A stretch of 64,000 nucleotides of DNA from Phenylobacterium sp. (GTDB lineage: Bacteria; Pseudomonadota; Alphaproteobacteria; Caulobacterales; Caulobacteraceae). The position numbers and the translations under genes are program-made. The notes beneath the pieces are model-generated. The model was given only the letters and a program-made list of their open reading frames with translations, was not told the DNA's origin and made no database searches. This document shows, in pieces, positions 7,307 to 49,377 of the stretch; the first letter of the stretch is position 1, and every line of letters begins with the position of its first letter. The DNA lies in NCBI RefSeq assembly GCF_013911965.1, contig NZ_JACESE010000015.1, forward strand, positions 1-64,000. The letters are read 5' to 3'.

Positions 7307-10078
7307 GTGTTCGGACAGAACCAAAACGGCGGCGCCGGCCGCGCGCGCCAGTCGGCCTGGCTGATGACCAGCTGCGCCGCCGTCGCCCTGATAGGGGCCA
7401 CGGCCGCCCAGGCGCAGGACCAGGCCACCGAGGTGGACGAGATCGTCGTCACCGGCAGCTATGAGCGCAGCCTGCAGCAGGCCGTCGAACTGAAGCGCGA
7501 GAACGTCGGCTTCTCCGACTCCATCGTCGCCACCGACGTGGCCAACTTCCCCGAACAGAACCTGGCCGAGGCGCTGCAGCGCATGCCCGGCGTGACCATC
7601 GAGCGGAACAAGGGCCTGGGCACCCGCGTCATGGTCCGCGGCCTGCCGAGCGAGTTCACCTTCGTCACCATCAACGACCTGGCCACCGCCTCGGGCAGCG
7701 GCGGCCGCGACGTCGAGTTCGACATCTTCGCCTCGGAGATCATCCAGCAGGTCACCGTCCAGAAGTCGCCGACGGCCGCCGACGAGGAAGGCGGCATCGC
7801 CGGCTCGATCAACATCCGCACGGCCCGGCCGTTCGACTATTCCGGCGCGCGCCTGGTGGGCACGGTCGAGGGCGCCTACAACTCGATCTCCGAGGAGATC
7901 GACCCCAAGCTCTCCTTCCTGGCCAGCAACACCTGGGGCGACTTCGGCGCGCTCTTCTCCGTCTCGACCGCCAAGCGGACGAACCGCACCGACTCCAACT
8001 CCGGCATCAACTTCCGCCCCGCCTTCCGTTTCCTGGAAGCCTCGGGCACGCGCGGAACCCAGGCTGCGGCCGTCCTGGCCCGCGACGCCGGCGTGGTCGT
8101 GCAGGACCGCCGCGACCGCGACGAGACCGGCCGCATCATCTTTCAGGACAAGGTCGGCGACCGCGTCTATCTGAACGAACAGGATCAGTGGGGCGCCACG
8201 CTCGCCCTGCAGTACCGCCCGTCCTCGAACCTCAGCCTGTCCTTCGACGCGATGGTCGGCGGCTATGACGCCACCGAGGACGAGTATGATGCGGCGGCCT
8301 ATTCGGCTTCCAGCCGCTCGACCTTCGAGACGATCCACGAGTACGACGACACCACGCTCGCCGACTACGGCATGGTGATCCTGCGCGACGTCTCCTACAC
8401 GGCCACGCAGCACGAGTTCCTGAGCAAGGAGCGCATCAACAAGACCGACTACATGCAGTTCGGCGGCGAGCTGAACTGGAGCGGCGACAGCTGGGAATTC
8501 AACGCCCTGGCCGGCTATTCGGGCGCCGAGAAGACGCTGGACCACGCCAACCTCAAGCACGTGGCCTATGCGCCCTCGCGCACCCGCTGGACGGCCGACG
8601 GCGGCGAAACCATCCCGAGCGCCAACCCGGCCACCATCGACATGTACAATGCGCCCTCGAAGTACCTCTTCGAGGCCTATGAGACGAACTACGAGGCCAT
8701 CAGCGACGACAAGTACGCCGCCCAGGCGGACTTCACGAAGCACTTCGACCTCGGCTTCTTCCCCGCGCTCTCCAGCATCCAGGTGGGCGCCCGCTACACC
8801 GACAAGTCCAAGGAGCGGCAGTACGGCTCGCTGAACATCCAGGGCCCCGGCCCGGGCGACTCCTCCTGGGCCAACACCCGCACGCTCGCCGATAGCCCGC
8901 TGACCCCGATCAGCGACCTCGTGCCCGGCGGCGACTACAGCGCCCGCGACATCACCTGGAGCCAGGTTTCGAACGCCTATGCGCGGGACTTCTTCCGCTA
9001 TGACGGCTTCTACACGCCGTTCGACGACGGCCAGTACTACGAGGTGTCGGAGGAGACCTACAGCCTCTACGCCATGGCCGATTTCGACTTCGAGATCGCC
9101 CGCGTGCCGGTCTTCGTGAACGCCGGCGCCCGCTATGTCGACACCACCACCACCTCGTCCGGCTTCCACCAGATCCAGAACCCGGACGGCTCCACCGGCT
9201 ATACGCCGGCGCCGGTCACCAGCGAGGGCGGTTACGACAAGGTCCTGCCGAGCCTGAACTTCAACGCCGAGCTGACCGACAGCATCATCCTGCGCGGCGC
9301 GGCCTCGAAGACCCTGATCCGGCCGGCGCTCACCGACCTCGCCTACAAGCGTACGGCCAGCTGGAACTCGTTCCGCTTCACCGACGGCAACCCGAACCTC
9401 GCCCCCACCTACGCCAAGCAGTGGGAGCTGGGCCTCGAGAAGTATCTCGACCAGGGCGGCCTGCTGGCGGTCTCCTACTTCTGGAAGGAGATCGAGGGCG
9501 TCGTGCGCAGCGAGCTCACCGGCACGGTGCCGAACGTGACCAAGTACAACGCCAACGGCACGATCGACGGCGTCTACGACTTCGACGTCTACCAGCCGGT
9601 CAACGCCGACGGCTCCTATGAGGTCAGCGGCGTGGAGCTGGTGGCCCTGGTGCCGCTCGGCCTGATCTACGCCCCGCTGCAGGGCTTCGGGATCAACGCC
9701 AACTACACCCTGCTCGACAGCTCGCTGACGGGCGAGTCCGACCTCGGCATCCCGACCCCGCCGGTGGGGCTGGCCGACAAGACCTACAACGTCACGCTCT
9801 ACTACGAGCGGGATCGCTTCCAGGCGCGTGCGTCCTACAACTACAAGGACAAGTACGTGGAAGGCATCGGCTACGAAATGTACCCGATCTATCGTGACGC
9901 CTATGGCCAGACCGACGTCTCGGTCAGCTATGACCTGACCGACCGCTTCCAGCTCAGCCTGGAAGGGATCAACATCACCGACGAAGAGACCAAGGGCTAC
10001 ACGATGCACCCGTCCTTCCCGACCATGTACGAGCTGTCGGGACGCCGCTTCACGCTCGGCCTGCGCATGGAGTGGTGA
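7307..10078 (+). CDS. TonB-dependent receptor (TonB-Xanth-Caul type)
   Basis: Outer-membrane transporter of 923 residues. It has an N-terminal export signal (hydrophobic core ending AAQAQ near residue 36), a TonB-box-like VDEIVVTGSY, and a plug with FPEQNLAEALQRMPGV followed by RGLPSEF. The long barrel ends LGLRMEW. The plug sequence matches the Xanthomonas/Caulobacter subfamily, whose characterised members import oligosaccharides or other plant-derived nutrients. The start appears to be GTG at 7307, preceded by GGAG. There is no STN domain, so it is not itself the sensor for the sigma factor downstream. A strong hairpin follows the gene. Confidence 0.93.
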   Translation: MFGQNQNGGAGRARQSAWLMTSCAAVALIGATAAQAQDQATEVDEIVVTGSYERSLQQAVELKRENVGFSDSIVATDVANFPEQNLAEALQRMPGVTIERNKGLGTRVMVRGLPSEFTFVTINDLATASGSGGRDVEFDIFASEIIQQVTVQKSPTAADEEGGIAGSINIRTARPFDYSGARLVGTVEGAYNSISEEIDPKLSFLASNTWGDFGALFSVSTAKRTNRTDSNSGINFRPAFRFLEASGTRGTQAAAVLARDAGVVVQDRRDRDETGRIIFQDKVGDRVYLNEQDQWGATLALQYRPSSNLSLSFDAMVGGYDATEDEYDAAAYSASSRSTFETIHEYDDTTLADYGMVILRDVSYTATQHEFLSKERINKTDYMQFGGELNWSGDSWEFNALAGYSGAEKTLDHANLKHVAYAPSRTRWTADGGETIPSANPATIDMYNAPSKYLFEAYETNYEAISDDKYAAQADFTKHFDLGFFPALSSIQVGARYTDKSKERQYGSLNIQGPGPGDSSWANTRTLADSPLTPISDLVPGGDYSARDITWSQVSNAYARDFFRYDGFYTPFDDGQYYEVSEETYSLYAMADFDFEIARVPVFVNAGARYVDTTTTSSGFHQIQNPDGSTGYTPAPVTSEGGYDKVLPSLNFNAELTDSIILRGAASKTLIRPALTDLAYKRTASWNSFRFTDGNPNLAPTYAKQWELGLEKYLDQGGLLAVSYFWKEIEGVVRSELTGTVPNVTKYNANGTIDGVYDFDVYQPVNADGSYEVSGVELVALVPLGLIYAPLQGFGINANYTLLDSSLTGESDLGIPTPPVGLADKTYNVTLYYERDRFQARASYNYKDKYVEGIGYEMYPIYRDAYGQTDVSVSYDLTDRFQLSLEGINITDEETKGYTMHPSFPTMYELSGRRFTLGLRMEW

Positions 10079-40839: not shown

Positions 40840-40922
40840 GGGAGCATTTCCCTGGTCGAACGGCCAGCTGCGCGAACTTTCGTCGAACGGTGATAGGCCA
40901 GATGGACAGGGGGGAGCCCGCC

Positions 40923-42425
40923 ATGGCCAATCAATCTTCACAAATGCAGCAGCGTCTGGATTTCATCGGCCTGGACGCCAAGGCGCTCAAGACCCTTCGC
41001 GGACTGGGGGGCTTCGTTTCCGAGGCCATCGGCCCGGCCCTCGACGTCTTCTACGGCAAGGTCCGCCAGACCCCGGAAGTGAAGCGGTTCTTCAAGGACG
41101 ACAGACACATGTCCGGCGCCCAGAGCCGGCAGGCGCGCCACTGGGGCGTGATCTCCGAGGGCCAGTTCGGCGACGAATACGCCCGCGGCGTGCGCGCGAT
41201 CGGCGAGACTCACGCCCGGCTCGGTCTGGAGCCGCGCTGGTACATCGGCGGCTACGCCCTCGTCCTGGAGCAGCTGATCCACGCGGCCGTCCGCAAGCAG
41301 TGGCCGACGCTTACGCGCCGCACCCGTCCCGAGGAGGTGTCCGAGGCGCTCTCGGCCCTGATGAAGGCGACCATGCTCGACATGGACCTCGCCATCTCCA
41401 TCTATCTCGACACGCTCGAGGCCCAGCGGCAGGAAGCCGAGGCGGCCCGCCGTCAGACCGAAGAGCAGCAGACCGCCGCCATGACGGCCCTGGCCGAGGC
41501 GCTCGGCCAGCTCGCCGAGGGCGACCTGACGCGGCCGCTGAGCGCGCCCCTGGCGCCCCAGTTCGAAGGGGTGAAGTCCGACTTCAACACCGCCGTGGAG
41601 CGGCTGCGGACGGCGATGCTGGCGGTGGCGGAATCCACCGGCGGCATCCGCACGGGCGCCGACGAGATCTCCGCCGCCTCCGACGACCTGTCCCGCCGCA
41701 CCGAGCAGCAGGCGGCCAGCCTCGAAGAGACCGCCGCGGCCCTGCACGAACTCACCGAGAGCGTCCGCAAGGCCGCCAGCGGCGCCCGGGACACCGCCTC
41801 CATGGTCGATGCGGCCAAGGGCGAGGCGGTGCGTTCCGGCGAGGTCGTCGACCGCGCCGTGGCCGCCATGGGCGAGATCGACGGCTCGTCCAAGCAGATC
41901 GGCCAGATCATCGGCGTGATCGACGAGATCGCCTTCCAGACCAACCTGCTGGCGCTCAACGCCGGCGTCGAAGCCGCCCGCGCGGGCGAGGCCGGCCGCG
42001 GCTTCGCCGTCGTCGCCTCGGAAGTGCGCGCCCTCGCCCAGCGTTCGTCGGAGGCCGCCAAGGAAATCCGCAACCTGATCACCCAGAGCGCTGGTCAGGT
42101 GCAGTCCGGCGTCGCCCTGGTGGCCGAGACGGGCGACGCCCTGCGCCGCATCGTCGACCGCGTCGTGGAGATCGACCGCAGCGTGGCCGAGATCGCCGCC
42201 TCGGCCGAGGAGCAGTCGCGGGCGCTCAGCGAGGTGAACTCCGCCGTCGGCCAGATGGACGGCGTGACGCAGCGCAACGCCGCCATGGTGGAGCAGGCCA
42301 CGGCCGCCGCCCATTCCCTTCGCAAGGAAACCGACCAGCTCAACGCACTGGTCGCCCGCTTCCGCACCGGCCAGGCGCCGGCGGCCGCCGCGGCGGCCCG
42401 CGGCGGCTACCGCTCCGCGGCCTGA
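40923..42425 (+). CDS. Globin-coupled methyl-accepting chemotaxis protein
   Basis: A 500-residue soluble chemoreceptor. The N-terminal protoglobin domain (residues 10-165) has proximal haem ligand H97 in [19 protein letters not shown], the HemAT-type pattern, so it probably senses O2. A linker helix (175-205) and a HAMP-like stretch lead to the signalling domain with hairpin [20 protein letters not shown] and [19 protein letters not shown]. No transmembrane segment is present. The start at 40923 follows GGGGGGAG. The 3' end overlaps the convergent dehydrogenase gene by 19 bases. Confidence 0.93.
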
Positions 42426-43726
42426 GCCGCCGGGGCGGCGGCGACGCGCCAGACCGCCCCGCCGGCGTCGTCGGTGACCAGCAGGGCGCCGGCCCGGTCC
42501 ACCTGCACGTCGACCGGCCGGCCCATGGCTTCTCCGTCCGCGTTCAGGAAGCCGTCGAGGAAGACCTGCGCCTCGCCGCTGGGCCTGCCGCCGGCGAAGG
42601 GCACGAAGACCACGCGATAGCCGTTCAGCGGCGCCCGGTTCCAGGACCCGTGCTGGCCCACGAAGGCGCCGCCGCGATAGGCCGCCGGGAAGGCCTGCGC
42701 GGTGTAGAAGGTCAGGCCCAGCGACGCGGTGTGGGGACCCAGCGCATAGTCCGGCTTGATGGCGGTCGCGACGAGGTCAGGCCGCTGCGGCTTCACCCGC
42801 TCGTCCACATGGTCGCCGAAATAGCTGTAGGGCCAGCCGTAGAAGCCGCCCTGGCGCACGCTCGTCATGTAGTCGGGGACCAGGTCGTCGCCCAGCATGT
42901 CGCGCTCGTTCACCGCCGTCCAAAGGGCGCCGGTGACGGGTTCGAAGGCCATGCCGTTCGGATTGCGCAGGCCTGAGGCGTAGAGGCTGTAGGTCTTGGC
43001 GGCCGGGTCCACGGCGAGGATGGCGGCGCGGTTCTCCTCGGCCTCCATGCCGTTCTCGGCGATGTTGCTGTTGGAGCCGCTGGTGACGAACAGCCGTGCT
43101 CCGGCGGGGTCGGCGACGACGTTCTTCACCCAGTGGTGGTTGATGGGGCCAGCCGGCAGGTCGACGACCTTTTCCGGCTCGCCCTCCAAGCGCATCTGCC
43201 CGTCGGCATAGGGCGCGCGGACCAGGGCGTCGGTGTTGGCGATGTAGAGCATGCCGTCCATCAGGGCCATGCCCTGGGGCCGGTTCAGCCCCTCGGCGAA
43301 CACCTGGCGGAGTTCGGCCACGCCGTCGCCGTCGGCGTCGCGCAGCAGCACGATCTGATCGGGGCTGGGCTTCAGGGCGCCGGCGCGGGCCTGCACCTTC
43401 TGGGCGAACCAGTCCATGAAGCCTTCCGGCTCTTTGGGTTCTGAACTGGCCTCCGAGACCAGGACGTCGCCGTTGGGCAGGACGAGCAGCCAGCGCGGGT
43501 GGGCGAGGTCGCCGGCGAAGCGGGTGACGGTGAAGCCTTCCGGCGCGACGGGCGCGGCGCCGTCCGGCCAGCCCACCGCCTTGGCCGGGTTCACGCGCGG
43601 CAGCAGGTCCTTCTCCGGCTCGGGCAACTCGGGGTCCTGGCCGAAGCCGACCAGGGGCGAGGAACTGCCGGGCGAACAGGCGGCGAGCGAAAGGGCGGCG
43701 AGGACGGTGAGTGCGGCGGCGCGCAT
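42407..43726 (-). CDS. PQQ-type sugar dehydrogenase lipoprotein (sorbosone dehydrogenase-like)
   Basis: A 439-residue exported lipoprotein (lipobox LAAC, Cys17) with the six-bladed soluble glucose/sorbosone dehydrogenase fold: [25 protein letters not shown] near 69-93, [25 protein letters not shown] and [10 protein letters not shown]. It oxidises an aldose or related compound in the periplasm. It lies only 31 bases behind the DoxX gene on the same strand, so it may be the last gene of the bufferin operon. The 3' end overlaps the chemoreceptor gene by 19 bases. Confidence 0.9.
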
Positions 43727-43757: not shown

Positions 43758-44204
43758 TCAGCGAACGCCCAGGAGCCGGTCGATCGATATGGGTCCGGCT
43801 CCGAAGCGGAGCAGAACGAGCATCAGTGTGGCCCAGGACAGATGGGTCGGCCAAGCGTCGGGATAGACGAACAGCTGGATCACCAGGGTCATCCCCAGGA
43901 GGGCCAGGGCGGAGATCCGCGTGAACAGGCCCAGGATCAGCAGGACCGGGAAGACGTGTTCCGCCGCGGCCGCCGCCACGGCGGCGATGTCGGCGGGGAC
44001 GAGCGGCAGGCGGTATTCCTCGGCGAAGAGGTAGTAGGTCGTGTCCTTGATGGTGAAGAGGCCGTCAACCTTGGTCCGGCCGGATAGGAAGAAGATCGCC
44101 GCCAGCGACACCCGCGCCGCAAGCGTCAGCAGCGCGAGCGGCGCGAGGCGTTCCAGCGCCCGGGCGAGGCCGGCCGTGAGGCGGTTCAGTCGATTGCGGC
44201 TCAT
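43758..44204 (-). CDS. bufD: DoxX-family membrane protein of a bufferin operon
   Basis: A 148-residue inner-membrane protein with four hydrophobic helices (about residues 22-42, 65-85, 90-112 and 120-135) of the DoxX family, including [16 protein letters not shown]. DoxX proteins commonly end MNIO RiPP operons (buf, gig, hvf type), where a redox or maturation role in the membrane is proposed but unproven. Its ATG overlaps the upstream DUF2063 gene's stop by four bases (ATGA). Confidence 0.85.
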
Positions 44205-44956
44205 GGGCGAGGATCCAGGGGGGTGAAGCCGATGAGGAGCCCCTCGGCGGAGAGGGTCTCGGCCAGGGCGAGGGCGGGGCCGGGCGGTCCGGCGGCGAGC
44301 GCGGCGGCGCGAGCGGCCGCCAGGGATCGGCCGTCGCGGCAGGCGGCCAGGAAGGCATAGGCCTGCGGATCGAGCTTGCGGGCGCGGACTTCGTGCTGCG
44401 GCCGCCAGATGGCGAGCGGCTCGTCGGCGGCGACGAAGGCCAGGTCCCCAGGCGTGTCCGCCGGAAACCGATGAGCCAGCCAGAGGCTTGGCACGCTCGT
44501 GGAGAAGCGAAAGAGGCGCAGCGTCGGGTGAAGCGTTCCGCGATGGGCGGAGAGATCGGCCGGCGGCCGCAGGGCCGCGGGCGGGCTCTGCGGCCCTGCG
44601 GCCAGGTGCGCCTCCAGCCAGGCGCGGTCGAGCCGCGCCACCGGGGCGAGATAGGGCAGGTCCCGCGCCGGCGGGAAGGCGGCGAGCCAGTCGGGGAAGT
44701 CGCCGCCATAGGCGCTCAGGCGGGGGTCTTCTGGCGGCCGCTCGCGCAGGAAGGCGAGGGCGGCGGCGTCGAACCAGTCCTCGCCCACCATCTGGCGCAC
44801 GGTCGGGAAGGCGGCGGCCAGGGCCTCGACGCCGGCGGCGGCGACATTGTTGCGATAGACGGCCAGCGCCGGTCCAAGACCGAGCCCGGCGCCGTCGTCC
44901 TCGGGGTCGAGCAGGGCGCGGGCGAAGCGCGCCTGGAAGCGGGCGAGGTCAGACAT
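44201..44956 (-). CDS. bufC: DUF2063 RiPP-maturation partner (HvfC/BufC type)
   Basis: A 251-residue soluble protein of the HvfC/BufC (DUF2063, putative DNA-binding domain) family. The N-terminal [12 protein letters not shown] and [32 protein letters not shown] segments (about residues 8-62) are diagnostic. In MNIO systems this partner binds the precursor leader and delivers it to the oxygenase; the DNA-binding name is historical. Overlaps the MNIO gene by eight bases and the DoxX gene by four, a fully coupled unit. Confidence 0.88.
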
Positions 44957-45800
44957 GGGCGGCGAGGGGGCGCTTCGCCTGGTCCAGCAGCCGGGCGGCG
45001 CGATCGCGCTCGGCCATCAGCTCTGCGAAGGACGGCGGATTGTTGTCGCGCTCGATCAGGGTCGGCCGAGGTCCCGTGCGATCGAGAAGGGCGGAACAGA
45101 GCGCCCAGACCGCCTCGCAGACCGGAGCGCCATGGTCGTCGATGAGCAGGCCCGAGCGCCCGGCGTCCTCGGCATGGCCGGCCAGGTGGATCTCTCCCAC
45201 CGCATCGAGCGGCAGGGCGTCCAGATAGGCGCGCGCGGAGAAGCCGAGATTGCTGGCGCTAACATGGACGTTGTTCAGGTCGAGCAGCAGGCCGCAGCCG
45301 GTGCGCGCCACAAGCTCGGCGAGGAAGTCGGGTTCGGTGAGCTCGTGGCCCGGGAGCGGCGCGTAGAGGGCCGGGTTCTCGATCAGCACGTTCCGCCCCA
45401 ACGCCTGCTGCAGCCGGTCCACATGAGCGCAGACGATCGCCAGCGCTTCGCGCGTCCGGGGGAAGGGCAGGAGATCGGGCATGTAGGCGCCGCCGGCGCG
45501 CGACCAGGCCAGGTGCTCCGAGACCAGGGCCGGGGCGAAGCGATCGCAAAGCGCGCGCAGCCGTTCGAGGTGCGCGGCGTCCGGCGGTTCTGCGCCGGCG
45601 AGCGACAGACCGACCCCGTGCAGCGAGAGCGGATGACGCTCGGCGATCGCCTCCAGCCAGGCCAGGCGGGGGCCGCCCTCCACCATGTAGTTCTCCGCAT
45701 GGACCTCGAACCACAGGCCCGGCGCCTCGGCCGCCAGGGCCTCGGCGAAGTGCTGCGGCTTCAGGCCGAGGCCTGCGGAGAGCTCGGGGCGGGCGGCCAT
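44949..45800 (-). CDS. bufB: MNIO-family iron oxygenase (DUF692, BufB/HvfB type)
   Basis: A 283-residue TIM-barrel enzyme of the multinuclear non-haem iron oxidative family (DUF692). The ligand pattern is intact: H61 in LHGVGLS, E95-H96, E141-N142, D174/N176/H179 (LDLNNVHVSA), E203/H205/H209 (EIHLAGH), D222-H223 and E250. MNIOs convert Cys residues of RiPP precursors to oxazolone/thioamide or thiooxazole groups; BufB enzymes modify DUF2282 precursors to copper-binding bufferins. It starts four bases after the precursor gene, the immediate substrate. Confidence 0.93.
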   Translation of the reverse strand: MAARPELSAGLGLKPQHFAEALAAEAPGLWFEVHAENYMVEGGPRLAWLEAIAERHPLSLHGVGLSLAGAEPPDAAHLERLRALCDRFAPALVSEHLAWSRAGGAYMPDLLPFPRTREALAIVCAHVDRLQQALGRNVLIENPALYAPLPGHELTEPDFLAELVARTGCGLLLDLNNVHVSASNLGFSARAYLDALPLDAVGEIHLAGHAEDAGRSGLLIDDHGAPVCEAVWALCSALLDRTGPRPTLIERDNNPPSFAELMAERDRAARLLDQAKRPLAAHV

Positions 45801-45804
45801 GGCC

Positions 45805-46098
45805 TCAGGCCGCCTTCGGCGTCAGGGAGCCTTCGCCCTTGGGCGTCTTGATGGAGGTGCAGGTGCCCTTGGGCACCAGCTTCCAGGCGTTCCCCTGATA
45901 GTCGACCTTGGACGTGCCGGCGCAGCTCGTGCCGGGACCGGCGGCGCAGTCGTTCTGGCCCGCCAGGGCGACGCCGTAGCACTTCTCCTTGGCGCCGTCG
46001 GTCTTGGCCATCTTGCCTTCCTCGGCGTGGGCCAGGGCGGCGGCGCCGGAGACGGCGAGCAGGGCGGCGCCGGCGGCCAGGGTCTTGGTGGAGGTCAT
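45805..46098 (-). CDS. bufA: Bufferin-type RiPP precursor (DUF2282)
   Basis: A 97-residue DUF2282 protein. The Sec signal peptide ends AHAE near residue 25; four cysteines follow, C40 ([13 protein letters not shown]), C51, C59 (TSCAGTS) and C80 (PKGTCTSI), the pattern of the bufferin-1 family. In Caulobacter these peptides are modified on Cys by the MNIO enzyme, exported and bind copper. The first gene of a coupled four-gene operon, with AAGGA before the ATG and a perfect GTAACC-N16-CGAA promoter on its strand. The signal peptide acts as the RiPP leader. Confidence 0.92.
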
Positions 46099-46148
46099 GG
46101 GGCGATCCTTCTCTTGAGGCCCGGCCGTGAACGCCGGGTCCTCAACCT

Positions 46149-46174
46149 TTCGCAGCGGCGCGCGGAGCGGTTAC
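46149..46174 (-). promoter_or_regulatory. SigF-type promoter of the bufferin operon
   Basis: On the minus strand, GTAACC (46174-46169), 16 bases, CGAA (46152-46149). This is the motif described for Caulobacter SigF-dependent genes and is identical to the motif in front of the sigma gene. The predicted transcript starts near 46142, about 45 bases before the precursor ATG. Confidence 0.85.
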
Positions 46175-46219
46175 GGCCAAGCCGGCGGATTTTTTCTGCA
46201 CCGCAGGCCGGGCGGCGAT

Positions 46220-46245
46220 GTAACCCTTGCCGCCGCACGCGCGAA
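46220..46245 (+). promoter_or_regulatory. SigF-type autoregulatory promoter
   Basis: GTAACC (46220-46225), 16 bases, CGAA (46242-46245) on the plus strand. The predicted start near 46251 lies 12 bases before the GTG of the sigma gene. This rules out the upstream TTG at 46227 as start for this transcript. Confidence 0.85.
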
Positions 46246-46262
46246 CCCGGGGCGAGAGAGGC

Positions 46263-46802
46263 GTGGACGAGATCGACCAGCAACTGCACCGGTGGATGGC
46301 GCAGGCCCTGGCGGGCGACGCCGGCGCCTATCGCCGTCTGTTGGCCGAGATCTCCCCGCGCCTGAGGCGGTACTTCGCCCGGCGCCTGCACGAGCCGGCC
46401 GAAGCCGAGGATCTGGTGCAGGAGACGCTCATCGCGGTTCATACCAAGCGCGAAACCTACGACGCCCGGCTGGCCTTCGCGCCCTGGCTCTACGCCGTCG
46501 CCCGCTACAAACTGATCGACCATCTGCGCCGCCGCGGCGTGCGCCGGCACGTGCCTCTCGAGGAAGCCGGCGTGCTGTTCGACGAGGCGGACCCCGAGGC
46601 GGGCCTCGCCCGCGGCGATCTCGACCGGCTGCTGGCGCCTCTGCCGGCGCGCCAGAGGGCCCTGCTGGAGGACGTGAAGCTCAAGGGCATGAGCGTGGCC
46701 GAAGCGGCGCAGCGCCATGGCTACAGCGAAGGCGCGGCCAAGGTCGCGCTGCACCGAACGATGAAGTCCCTGACCGCCCGGGTGGCCGCCGATGAAGACT
46801 GA
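46263..46802 (+). CDS. sigF: ECF sigma factor, SigF-like (metal stress)
   Basis: A 179-residue ECF sigma factor. Region 2 (AEDLVQETLIAVHTKRETYD, FAPWLYAVARYKLID) and region 4 (MSVAEAAQRHGYSEG, AAKVALHRTMKSL) are clear. It overlaps the DUF1109 anti-sigma gene by 11 bases. In Caulobacter, SigF with anti-sigma NrsF responds to chromate and cadmium and controls DUF2282 genes; the same gene order and promoter motif occur here. The GTG at 46263 is preferred because the promoter's -10 lies at 46242-46245 and GAGAGAGG precedes the GTG. Confidence 0.9.
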   Translation: MDEIDQQLHRWMAQALAGDAGAYRRLLAEISPRLRRYFARRLHEPAEAEDLVQETLIAVHTKRETYDARLAFAPWLYAVARYKLIDHLRRRGVRRHVPLEEAGVLFDEADPEAGLARGDLDRLLAPLPARQRALLEDVKLKGMSVAEAAQRHGYSEGAAKVALHRTMKSLTARVAADED

Positions 46803-47427
46803 CGACCTGATCGAGGCCCTGGCGCTGGAGCCGGCGGCGCGCGCCGCGCCGGACCGGCGCGTGCTCGCCTTCGCCCTGGCCGGGACGGCGGCCGCCGTCG
46901 CCGCGACGCTCTGGCTGATGGGCCCGCGTCCGGACCTCGCCGAAGCGACGGGCCTCGCCTCCTTCGCAGGAAAGGCGGGCTACACCGTGATGCTCGCCGC
47001 GGTGGGGTTCTGGCTGCTCGACCGGCTGGGTCGGCCCGGGGCGGCAGTCCGCGCCCCGGCGCTCGCCCTGACGCTCCTGGCGCTCGCGGCGGTCGCGGCG
47101 GCGATCCTCGAACTGGCCCCGCTGCCGGCGGAGGCGCGGATGGGAACCCTGATGGGCTCCACCGCCAGCGTCTGTCCCTGGCGCATCGCAGGCCTCGGCC
47201 TGCTGGTGCTGCCCCCGGCCCTGCTGGCCGCGCGCCGCTTCGCCCCCCTCAGCCCCGCCCTGGCCGGCGCGGCGGCGGGCCTGTTCGCCGGCGGCCTGGC
47301 GGCCACCGCCTATGGCCTGCACTGCGGCGAGCAGGCGGTGAGCTTTCTGGTGGTCTGGTACACGGCCGGCGTGCTGCTGACCGCCCTGCTGGGGGCCCTG
47401 GCCGGCGCGCGCCTTCTGCGCTGGTGA
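46792..47427 (+). CDS. nrsF: DUF1109 membrane anti-sigma factor, NrsF-like
   Basis: A 211-residue inner-membrane protein with six hydrophobic helices (about residues 24-43, 61-78, 88-108, 131-148, 155-173 and 184-207) and a short cytoplasmic N-terminus (MKTDDLIEALALEP). Two conserved cysteines, C128 (TASVCPWR) and C178 (GLHCGEQ), match the pair needed for metal sensing in Caulobacter NrsF. It should hold SigF until the cysteines react with metal or oxidant. Overlaps sigF by 11 bases. Confidence 0.9.
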   Translation: MKTDDLIEALALEPAARAAPDRRVLAFALAGTAAAVAATLWLMGPRPDLAEATGLASFAGKAGYTVMLAAVGFWLLDRLGRPGAAVRAPALALTLLALAAVAAAILELAPLPAEARMGTLMGSTASVCPWRIAGLGLLVLPPALLAARRFAPLSPALAGAAAGLFAGGLAATAYGLHCGEQAVSFLVVWYTAGVLLTALLGALAGARLLRW

Positions 47428-47462: not shown

Positions 47463-48137
47463 ATGGCCGAGGTTCTTTGGCTCACCGTCAGGCTGGCGGG
47501 GCTCACCACCATCGTCCTGCTCGTCCTGGCGACGCCGCTCGCCTGGTGGCTGGCGCGCGACCGCTCGGTGCGGGCCAGCGTGGCCGGGGCCCTGGTCGGC
47601 CTGCCCATCGTGCTGCCGCCCACCGTGCTCGGCTTCTACCTGCTGATCGCCATGGGGCCCGACAGTCCCCTGATGGCGCCGTTGCAGCTCTTCGGCGTGC
47701 GGACGCTGGCCTTCACCTTCGAGGGGCTGGTGATCGGCTCGGTGGTCTATTCGCTGCCGTTCGCCGTGCAGCCCCTGCGCAACGCCTTCATGGGCGTCGG
47801 CGCCGAGCCTCTGGAGGCGGCCCGCACCCTCGGGGCCGGACCGGTCTCTGTGTTCCTTCGCGTCGCCCTGCCGCTCGCCGCCCCGGGCTATGTCACGGCC
47901 GCCATTCTGACCTTCGCCCACACGGTCGGCGAGTTCGGCGTGGTGCTGATGATCGGGGGCGCCATTCCAGGAGAGACGGCGGTGGTCTCCACGGAGATCT
48001 ACCGCCTGGTCGAATCCCTCGAATGGGGCCGGGCCCACGCCCTGGCGGGACTGCTGGTCGCCTTCGGCTTCGCGGTGATTCTCGTCCTGCTGCTGATCGA
48101 GCGCCGCCTTGGCGCGGTCCGCATGGGCGATTCCTGA
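47463..48137 (+). CDS. modB: Molybdate-type ABC permease (orphan ModB-like)
   Basis: A 224-residue inner-membrane permease. The EAA-type cytoplasmic loop is seen as [23 protein letters not shown], and the conserved [11 protein letters not shown] and [11 protein letters not shown] segments match ModB/CysW proteins. About five or six helices. No molybdate-binding protein or ATPase gene is in the window, so it is an orphan here; partners must be elsewhere. It lies 35 bases behind nrsF with no terminator and may be read through from the SigF promoter. Confidence 0.88.
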
Positions 48138-48306
48138 GCAGACGGCGCGGCGGGTCTGCGCAAATCCGCGCCGGGACGCCTCGGGCCGGGGCGCCCGCCG
48201 GACGGCGCCAAGTTGAGGTCAGTCTTTCGGTGTCGTTGCAGTTGAAACCGGTCATGATCGCGAACCGCGTCAGCGGAAGTCGTGAGTCGCGTTCGGGAGG
48301 CGCGTG

Positions 48307-49377
48307 ATGTCCGGGCAAGAGGGGCTCGTACCCGAGCGGATCCTGGAGCTTTCCGAGCGGCTCTCGAAGGTCGCCGGAGCCAGCATCGCCGAGATCTCGC
48401 TGATCAACCGCGAGGCCAAGATGCTGGCGATCAACGCCTTGATCACCGCGGCGCGGGCGGGCGAGGCGGGCAAGGGGTTCGCCCTCGTCGCCGAGGAGTT
48501 CAAGCGCATCTCGACCGAAATCGACGAGGTGGCCCACTCGCTGGAGAGCAAGGTCCAGGCCGACCTGGCCGAACTGGCCGGCGTGGGCGGCGCCATCCTC
48601 TCGCACATGCGCGGACAGAGACTGGCCGACCTGGCCCTCAACGCCATCGAGATCATCGACCGGAATCTCTATGAGCGCACCTGCGACGTGCGCTGGTGGG
48701 CGACGGATTCGGCCGTGGTCGACTGCGTGGCCGATCCTTCGCCGGAGGCCTCCCGCCACGCCAGCGACCGGCTGAAGGTCATCCTCGACGCCTACACCGT
48801 CTATCTCGACCTCTGGATCTGCGACCGGGAGGGACGCGTGGTGGCCAACGGCCGTCCGCAGGCCTACCCGCAGGTGTCCGGTTCGTCCGTGAAGGGCGTC
48901 GACTGGTTCGAGCGCGCGCGCCGGACCGCCTCCGGGGACGAGTTCGTGGCCTGCGACGTGGCGCGCTCACAGTTGCTGGCGAACGCGCCCGTGGCCACCT
49001 ACGCCGCGGCCATCCGCCGGGGCGGCGAGGCGCAGGGCGAGGTGCTGGGCGTCCTCGGCATTCATTTCGACTGGCGGCCCCAGGCGAAGGCCGTGGTCGA
49101 CGGGGTGCGCCTGACGGAGGAGGAACGCGCGCGCTCGCGGGTCCTGCTGCTGGATGCGGCCGGGCGTGTGCTGGCCGCGTCGGATGGCCGTGGAGAACTG
49201 GCGGAGGTCTTCGCCCTGCCGGGCGACGTCGGCGCCATGGGCAGCTACCGGACCGAGGCGGCCACGGTCGGCTACGCCCTCACGCCGGGCTACGAAACCT
49301 ATAAGGGCCTCGGCTGGTACGGCTGCATCGTGCAGAACGAGGCGAGCGCTTCGGCCGCCGCCTCCGCAGCCGCCTGA
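48307..49377 (+). CDS. Soluble chemoreceptor-like protein with inverted domain order
   Basis: A 356-residue protein without transmembrane segments. The chemoreceptor signalling tip is at the extreme N-terminus (residues 30-68: [38 protein letters not shown]), followed by helices to about 110. The C-terminal part (130-345) resembles a Cache/PAS-like sensor with VYLDLWICDREGRVVANG, VKGVDWFERAR and TYAAAIRRGG. Ordinary receptors have the sensor first. ATG 48307 follows GGGAGG by six bases; a GTG three bases earlier is less well spaced. Confidence 0.85.
   Translation: MSGQEGLVPERILELSERLSKVAGASIAEISLINREAKMLAINALITAARAGEAGKGFALVAEEFKRISTEIDEVAHSLESKVQADLAELAGVGGAILSHMRGQRLADLALNAIEIIDRNLYERTCDVRWWATDSAVVDCVADPSPEASRHASDRLKVILDAYTVYLDLWICDREGRVVANGRPQAYPQVSGSSVKGVDWFERARRTASGDEFVACDVARSQLLANAPVATYAAAIRRGGEAQGEVLGVLGIHFDWRPQAKAVVDGVRLTEEERARSRVLLLDAAGRVLAASDGRGELAEVFALPGDVGAMGSYRTEAATVGYALTPGYETYKGLGWYGCIVQNEASASAAASAAA

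What the first reader, a model, noticed from the sequence alone, without database searches (positions are those of the whole stretch)
43758..47427. Complete bufferin RiPP operon divergent from its sigma/anti-sigma pair
A DUF2282 precursor with four Cys, an MNIO enzyme with all ligand motifs, a DUF2063 partner and DoxX lie in one coupled operon (four-base gap, then 8- and 4-base overlaps). The operon faces a SigF-like ECF sigma factor and a DUF1109 anti-sigma factor carrying two cysteines at 128 and 178. Established knowledge links SigF/NrsF to chromate/cadmium stress and DUF2282 bufferins to copper in Caulobacter. This locus puts both in one regulated unit.
Basis: partly seen in the sequence, partly recalled or inferred. 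Interest (0 to 1): 0.85.

Follow-up and report, generated by a model that had tools for sequence, protein, structure and literature searches.

The report
Known copper-buffering peptide operon with SigF
A bacterium related to Caulobacter carries a four-gene operon for a probable copper-binding modified peptide, facing the sigma factor that probably switches it on; the same locus was described in Caulobacter in 2012, so this is an ordinary, well-preserved example.

Summary
A DUF2282 precursor with four Cys, an MNIO enzyme, a DUF2063 partner and DoxX form a tight minus-strand operon (4-base gap, 8- and 4-base overlaps), divergent from an ECF sigma factor and an NrsF (DUF1109) anti-sigma with Cys128 and Cys178. 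The 164-base divergent gap also holds two exact copies, one per strand, of the published Caulobacter SigF promoter GTAACC-N16-CGAA. The genome holds three exact copies; the third lies 22 bases before a cytochrome b561 / MsrP-like molybdoenzyme pair. The arrangement is not new: C. crescentus CC3252-CC3257 has the same genes in the same order, with SigF dependence, 5'RACE promoters and the NrsF cysteines tested (PMC3511200), and copper induction with a Cu-sensitive sigF mutant (PMC8224329). In 99 sampled genomes of the family, all 29 with DUF2282 have NrsF within 5 kb. In 25 divergent loci the promoter is found on the bufferin side in 25 and on the sigF side in 22. The one modest lead: two same-genus relatives keep sigF-nrsF at this site without the bufferin operon.

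The parts
45805..46098 (-). Buf1-type bufferin precursor (DUF2282), 97 aa, Cys 40/51/59/80, apparent N-terminal Sec signal ending near AHA-EE (by eye, no tool)
   Evidence: four Cys invariant in 38 of 38 rows, window included
44949..45800 (-). MNIO enzyme (DUF692), bufferin maturase BufB
   Evidence: Pfam 1.3e-99; NCBIfam MNIO_BufB above cut-off; the only PF05114 match in the genome at E up to 0.001
44201..44956 (-). DUF2063 partner protein (BufC-type)
   Evidence: Pfam 2e-23; NCBIfam HvfC 6.6e-11, below cut-off
43758..44204 (-). DoxX membrane protein, last core gene of the operon
   Evidence: Pfam 9.1e-19; NCBIfam HvfX family 9.3e-12, below cut-off
46149..46174 (-). SigF-type promoter of the bufferin operon, GTAACC-N16-CGAA, exact; 50 bases lie between it and the precursor start codon
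   Evidence: bufferin-side copy (up to one mismatch, spacer 15 or 16) in 25 of 25 divergent gaps, window included, against about 1.3% of shuffled gaps
46220..46245 (+). SigF-type promoter of sigF-nrsF, GTAACC-N16-CGAA, exact; 17 bases lie between it and GTG 46263
   Evidence: sigF-side copy (up to one mismatch, spacer 15 or 16) in 22 of 25 divergent gaps, window included, against about 0.6% of shuffled gaps
46263..46802 (+). ECF sigma factor SigF, 179 aa from GTG
   Evidence: NCBIfam PRK12539 subfamily above cut-off, 182 vs 171 bits
46792..47427 (+). NrsF (DUF1109) membrane anti-sigma factor, Cys128 and Cys178
   Evidence: Pfam 1.8e-53; both Cys kept in 63 of 64 distinct NrsF rows found by phmmer, the 64th being the window's own copy cut off by a locus end

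Best explanation
This is the counterpart of the Caulobacter crescentus sigF-nrsF / bufferin-1 locus. At rest NrsF, an inner-membrane protein, holds SigF at the membrane. Thiol-reactive metals (Cu; also chromate or cadmium) disturb NrsF through its two conserved cysteines, and SigF is freed. SigF then binds GTAACC-N16-CGAA and transcribes its own operon rightward and the bufferin operon leftward from the shared 164-base gap. The precursor is made with a signal peptide; the MNIO enzyme, with the DUF2063 partner, converts the central cysteines (Cys51, Cys59) to thiooxazoles, while Cys40 and Cys80 form a disulphide. The product is exported and sequesters copper in the periplasm; DoxX is an accessory membrane protein of unsettled role. 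In this genome the same regulon probably also includes a cytochrome b561 / MsrP-like molybdoenzyme pair, perhaps for repair or redox protection of envelope proteins. Shown here: genes, order, promoter sequences, conservation. Inferred from the Caulobacter and bufferin literature: signal, release, modification, copper binding. Inferred only: that the third site works and the role of its operon.
For: Gene families and exact operon geometry. Two exact SigF promoters in the divergent gap matching the SigF-binding sequence given in PMC3511200 (passage). Same gene order and nearly equal lengths in C. crescentus Table 1: SigF 179 aa in both, NrsF 214 vs 211, DUF2282 93 vs 97, DUF692 280 vs 283, DUF2063 254 vs 251, DoxX 150 vs 148; Cys131/181 vs 128/178. 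Cu raises these genes in Caulobacter and a sigF::Tn5 mutant is Cu-sensitive. 29 of 29 DUF2282-bearing genomes, out of 99, have NrsF within 5 kb on the same contig (compared by hand); 27 of the other 70 have NrsF (Fisher p = 9e-10; the genomes are related, so the p-value is too kind). Promoter found in 25/25 and 22/25 divergent gaps. The third exact copy lies 22 bases before the ATG of a cytochrome b561 gene on C13; a YedY/MsrP gene (CC2748) is in the Caulobacter SigF regulon.
Against: No expression or mass-spectrometry data for this organism. The motif alone is weak evidence: three exact sites in the genome against two for the reversed pattern; in the window, counting one mismatch, 3 matches, reached by 4 of 100 shuffles; and exact copies occur in 85 of 99 family genomes, many without NrsF, with control counts of similar size. 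The argument rests on position. NrsF scores below the NCBIfam NrsF equivalog cut-off (135.5 vs 300 bits) and the precursor's only NCBIfam hit (BufA2) is below cut-off; Pfam cut-offs are passed. In C. crescentus the sigF operon is only weakly auto-regulated and has a second unknown regulator.
Confidence: 0.93

Rival explanations
1. The operon makes an MNIO-modified peptide, but its main job is not copper: it answers chromate, cadmium or oxidative/sulfur stress of the envelope, with copper binding a side effect.
For: SigF was tied to Cr and Cd; the third promoter copy precedes a sulfoxide-reductase-like pair; nine of 99 genomes have a homologue of that MsrP-like gene within 5 kb of NrsF (compared by hand).
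Against: In Caulobacter a sigF mutant is not more sensitive to Cr or Cd but is Cu-sensitive; the literature assigns bufferins to copper sequestration in the periplasm; several oxidants did not induce the genes.
Confidence: 0.15
2. Sigma/anti-sigma and bufferin genes are merely neighbours; the operon is driven by another regulator.
For: SigF/NrsF pairs often exist without bufferin: 27 of 56 NrsF-bearing genomes lack DUF2282 (one of the 27, G079, has only a below-cut-off NrsF match), including two same-genus relatives with the same flanking genes.
Against: Exact SigF promoter on the bufferin side, found in 25 of 25 divergent gaps against about 1.3% of shuffled gaps.
Confidence: 0.02

Closest known systems
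Caulobacter crescentus CC3252-CC3257 (sigF-nrsF // DUF2282-DUF692-DUF2063-DoxX)
   Same: Same six genes, order, promoter consensus, NrsF cysteine pair and near-equal protein lengths.
   Different: Only one MNIO and one DUF2282 match in this genome, whereas C. crescentus has a second SigF-dependent operon, CC2907-2905. Here the molybdoenzyme gene is paired with a cytochrome b561; Caulobacter has a pair described as MsrPQ-like (CCNA_02834-02833).
gig / dax operon of Cupriavidus metallidurans
   Same: Homologous cluster, upregulated by Au, Ag and Cu (as told in PMC8224329).
   Different: It is reported not to affect Cu resistance there, in a host with many other Cu systems.
Captophorin/oxazolin (EGKCG) MNIO clusters
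   Same: MNIO plus DUF2063-type partner and thiooxazole chemistry (PMC13097082 passages).
   Different: EGKCG repeat precursors rather than a four-Cys DUF2282 domain.

Membership tests
Buf1 bufferin gene cluster | DUF2282 precursor with four conserved Cys | tested here: met
   Pfam PF10048 94.2 bits vs cut-off 22.4; four Cys in 38 of 38 rows
Buf1 bufferin gene cluster | Sec signal peptide on the precursor | not tested
   judged by eye only; no signal-peptide predictor was available
Buf1 bufferin gene cluster | MNIO maturase of the bufferin type | tested here: met
   NCBIfam NF050167 364 bits vs cut-off 310
Buf1 bufferin gene cluster | DUF2063 partner and DoxX in the same operon | tested here: met
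   (adjacency and overlaps; co-transcription itself not tested)
Buf1 bufferin gene cluster | Central Cys converted to thiooxazoles; copper binding | not testable with these tools
   needs mass spectrometry
SigF/NrsF (Caulobacter type) | ECF sigma followed by a DUF1109/NrsF anti-sigma with two conserved Cys | tested here: met
   but the NCBIfam NrsF equivalog model is matched below its cut-off (135.5 vs 300 bits)
SigF/NrsF (Caulobacter type) | GTAACC-N16-CGAA promoters at sigF and its targets | tested here: met
   consensus from PMC3511200
SigF/NrsF (Caulobacter type) | Release of SigF on metal stress | not testable with these tools
   needs an experiment

The most novel reading that the evidence does not exclude
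SigF/NrsF is a general periplasmic thiol-stress switch whose output module is exchanged in evolution: a bufferin operon in some lineages, a cytochrome b561 / MsrP-like molybdoenzyme pair or other genes (such as DUF1223) in others. The window genome runs both outputs from one switch, while two same-genus relatives have the switch at the same chromosomal site after losing, or before gaining, the bufferin operon.
Probability: 0.45. Interest if true: 0.35.

Novelty: already known. Interest (0 to 1): 0.15.

Why it matters
It confirms that the Caulobacter SigF-bufferin wiring is conserved down to the promoter bases. The species may be a simpler model than C. crescentus, having a single MNIO match, a single DUF2282 match and three exact SigF sites. 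The same-genus genomes with and without the operon offer a natural comparison of what bufferin adds to copper tolerance.

Tried and rejected
Second bufferin operon in this genome: none found; one MNIO and one DUF2282 match at E up to 0.001.

GSDH lipoprotein-like gene (42407-43726, 31 bases after DoxX) as a system part: rejected as a core part. Among the 59 loci searched it was found near sigF-nrsF only in the window and in two same-genus genomes (L090, L091), where it sits directly beside sigF with no bufferin operon and no listed SigF motif of its own. It may still be read through from the operon.

ModB (47463-48137), 35 bases after nrsF, as a linked gene: found only in the window among the same 59 loci.

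SigF control of the cytochrome b561 / MsrP-like pair across the family: only weakly upheld. Of 30 loci, an exact motif (16-base spacer) lies within 150 bases upstream in 3 (L112, which is the window genome, L126, L127); two more (L134, L136) have one with a 15-base spacer or one mismatch. The other 25 have none there, including G026 and G059. Over all 30 loci there were 11 motif matches (spacer 16, up to one mismatch) against 10 for a control with both half-sites reversed, summed over three spacers.

Targets of the other exact SigF sites in G026 and G059: no clear target gene from a rough gene call; not pursued. PDB sequence search with the precursor: two matches at E 0.7 and 0.9, taken as chance.

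Tree of 70 NrsF rows: the window groups with G026 and G059 (100/100), not with the other same-genus bufferin carriers G006 and G074; the bufferin label needs 15 changes (shuffled mean 22.9), so gains, losses or transfers have been frequent and their direction was not settled. Labels rest on matches to window proteins within 4.5 kb.

No structure prediction, fold search or Rfam search was run: the family assignments were already clear by sequence.
Full report
Observation. All six genes are present at the stated coordinates with the stated gap and overlaps, and the named Pfam family of each passes its cut-off by a wide margin. The precursor has exactly four cysteines (40, 51, 59, 80) and NrsF exactly two (128, 178). 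The sigma factor most likely starts at GTG 46263, giving 179 aa; the TTG that opens the frame lies inside the promoter motif.

Regulation. The divergent gap (46099-46262) holds two exact copies of GTAACC-N16-CGAA: 46149-46174 on the minus strand for the bufferin operon and 46220-46245 on the plus strand for sigF. With one mismatch allowed the whole window has three matches; shuffles give 0.99 on average and 4 of 100 reach three. I took the motif from recall of Caulobacter SigF and then confirmed it in PMC3511200, which gives it in this form (passages). Genome-wide there are three exact sites against two for the reversed control, so number alone says little; in the family, 85 of 99 genomes hold an exact copy somewhere, also many without NrsF, and control counts are of similar size. 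Position is the evidence. The third site (C13:10236-10261) lies 22 bases before the ATG of a cytochrome b561 gene (Pfam PF01292, 3.6e-23), whose end overlaps the start of a molybdopterin oxidoreductase gene (PF00174, 3.1e-36) by four bases. That protein matches the MsrP model best, at 1.2e-26, but below its cut-off (93.8 vs 207 bits).

Relatives. In 99 sampled genomes of the same family, 56 have an NrsF match (55 over the cut-off) and 29 have DUF2282; all 29 have NrsF within 5 kb on the same contig (compared by hand; Fisher p = 9e-10 with related genomes). MNIO genes occur in 32 of 99. From 59 loci, 25 distinct gaps of under 600 bases between divergent DUF2282 and sigF matches were found, the window's own included. 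The bufferin-side promoter is present in 25 and the sigF-side promoter in 22 (missing in L070, L083, L085), allowing one mismatch and a spacer of 15 or 16, against 1.3% and 0.6% of shuffled gaps. Loci with other arrangements were not counted there; examples are L023, L068 and L075. NrsF keeps both cysteines in 63 of 64 distinct rows found by phmmer at 1e-5 in L004-L094; the 64th is the window's own copy cut by a locus end. The rows come from loci with and without bufferin and were not split.

The switch without the peptide. 27 of 56 NrsF-bearing genomes lack DUF2282. In two same-genus genomes (G026, G059) sigF-nrsF, the GSDH gene and the protoglobin chemoreceptor gene keep the window's order, but the four bufferin genes are absent between sigF and GSDH; neither genome has a DUF2282 or MNIO match. 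In nine of 99 genomes a homologue of the MsrP-like gene lies within 5 kb of an NrsF gene; eight of these lack DUF2282, and the ninth (G010) has one NrsF copy beside each module (compared by hand). In three others a DUF1223 gene lies divergent from sigF (L142, L144, L151). This suggests an exchangeable output module, but the SigF motif was found close upstream of the molybdoenzyme pair in only 3 of 30 loci exactly and 5 of 30 loosely.

Literature. PMC3511200 (passages) describes the same locus in C. crescentus: SigF dependence of CC3254-3257, promoters by 5'RACE, Cys131/181 of NrsF, chromate and cadmium induction, and no induction above twofold by four oxidants or thiol agents. PMC8224329 (passages) adds Cu induction of the SigF regulon and Cu sensitivity of a sigF mutant. 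PMC12452194 (abstract, passages and the section on bufferin gene clusters) defines Buf1 as DUF2282, reports sigma and NrsF genes in Buf1 clusters, and assigns the central cysteines to modification and the outer two to a disulphide. PMC13097082 (passages) says bufferin 1 of C. vibrioides was assigned thiooxazoles. The S. meliloti RpoE1/RpoE4 sulfite paper (PMC3511301) was seen only in a listing. The original bufferin paper (Leprevost et al.) was not seen; two searches did not list it.

The family is taken to be Caulobacteraceae by inference: the same-family contig G005:C5 (520,202 bases) has the length and gene pattern of NZ_PUIC01000005.1 of Caulobacter sp. CCUG 60055.

Verdict. Real, functional-looking and ordinary: the counterpart of a published locus. 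Interest is low, with one modest lead: exchange of SigF/NrsF outputs between lineages.

Noticed in passing
G000:C13:10236-11890 (L089): The third exact SigF-type promoter in the genome, just upstream of a cytochrome b561 gene overlapping an MsrP-like molybdoenzyme gene.
   Followed up: yes
L090, L091 (genomes G026, G059): Same-genus relatives with sigF-nrsF, GSDH and protoglobin chemoreceptor in the window's order but with the four-gene bufferin operon absent.
   Followed up: yes
window 47463-48137: A molybdate permease gene (modB, above NCBIfam cut-off) starts 35 bases after nrsF on the same strand; the SigF regulon may include a molybdoenzyme. The adjacency was not seen in the other loci examined; modA and modC were not sought.
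   Followed up: partly
L142, L144, L151: DUF1223 genes divergent from sigF in three genomes of the family without bufferin.
   Followed up: partly
window 40890-42425 and 48304-49377: Protoglobin-MCP fusion (probable oxygen-sensing chemoreceptor) convergent with the GSDH gene; 48304-49377 carries a second, partial MCP-signal domain.
   Followed up: no
L061 (G007) 7633-7917: A second DUF2282 gene on the far side of nrsF.
   Followed up: no
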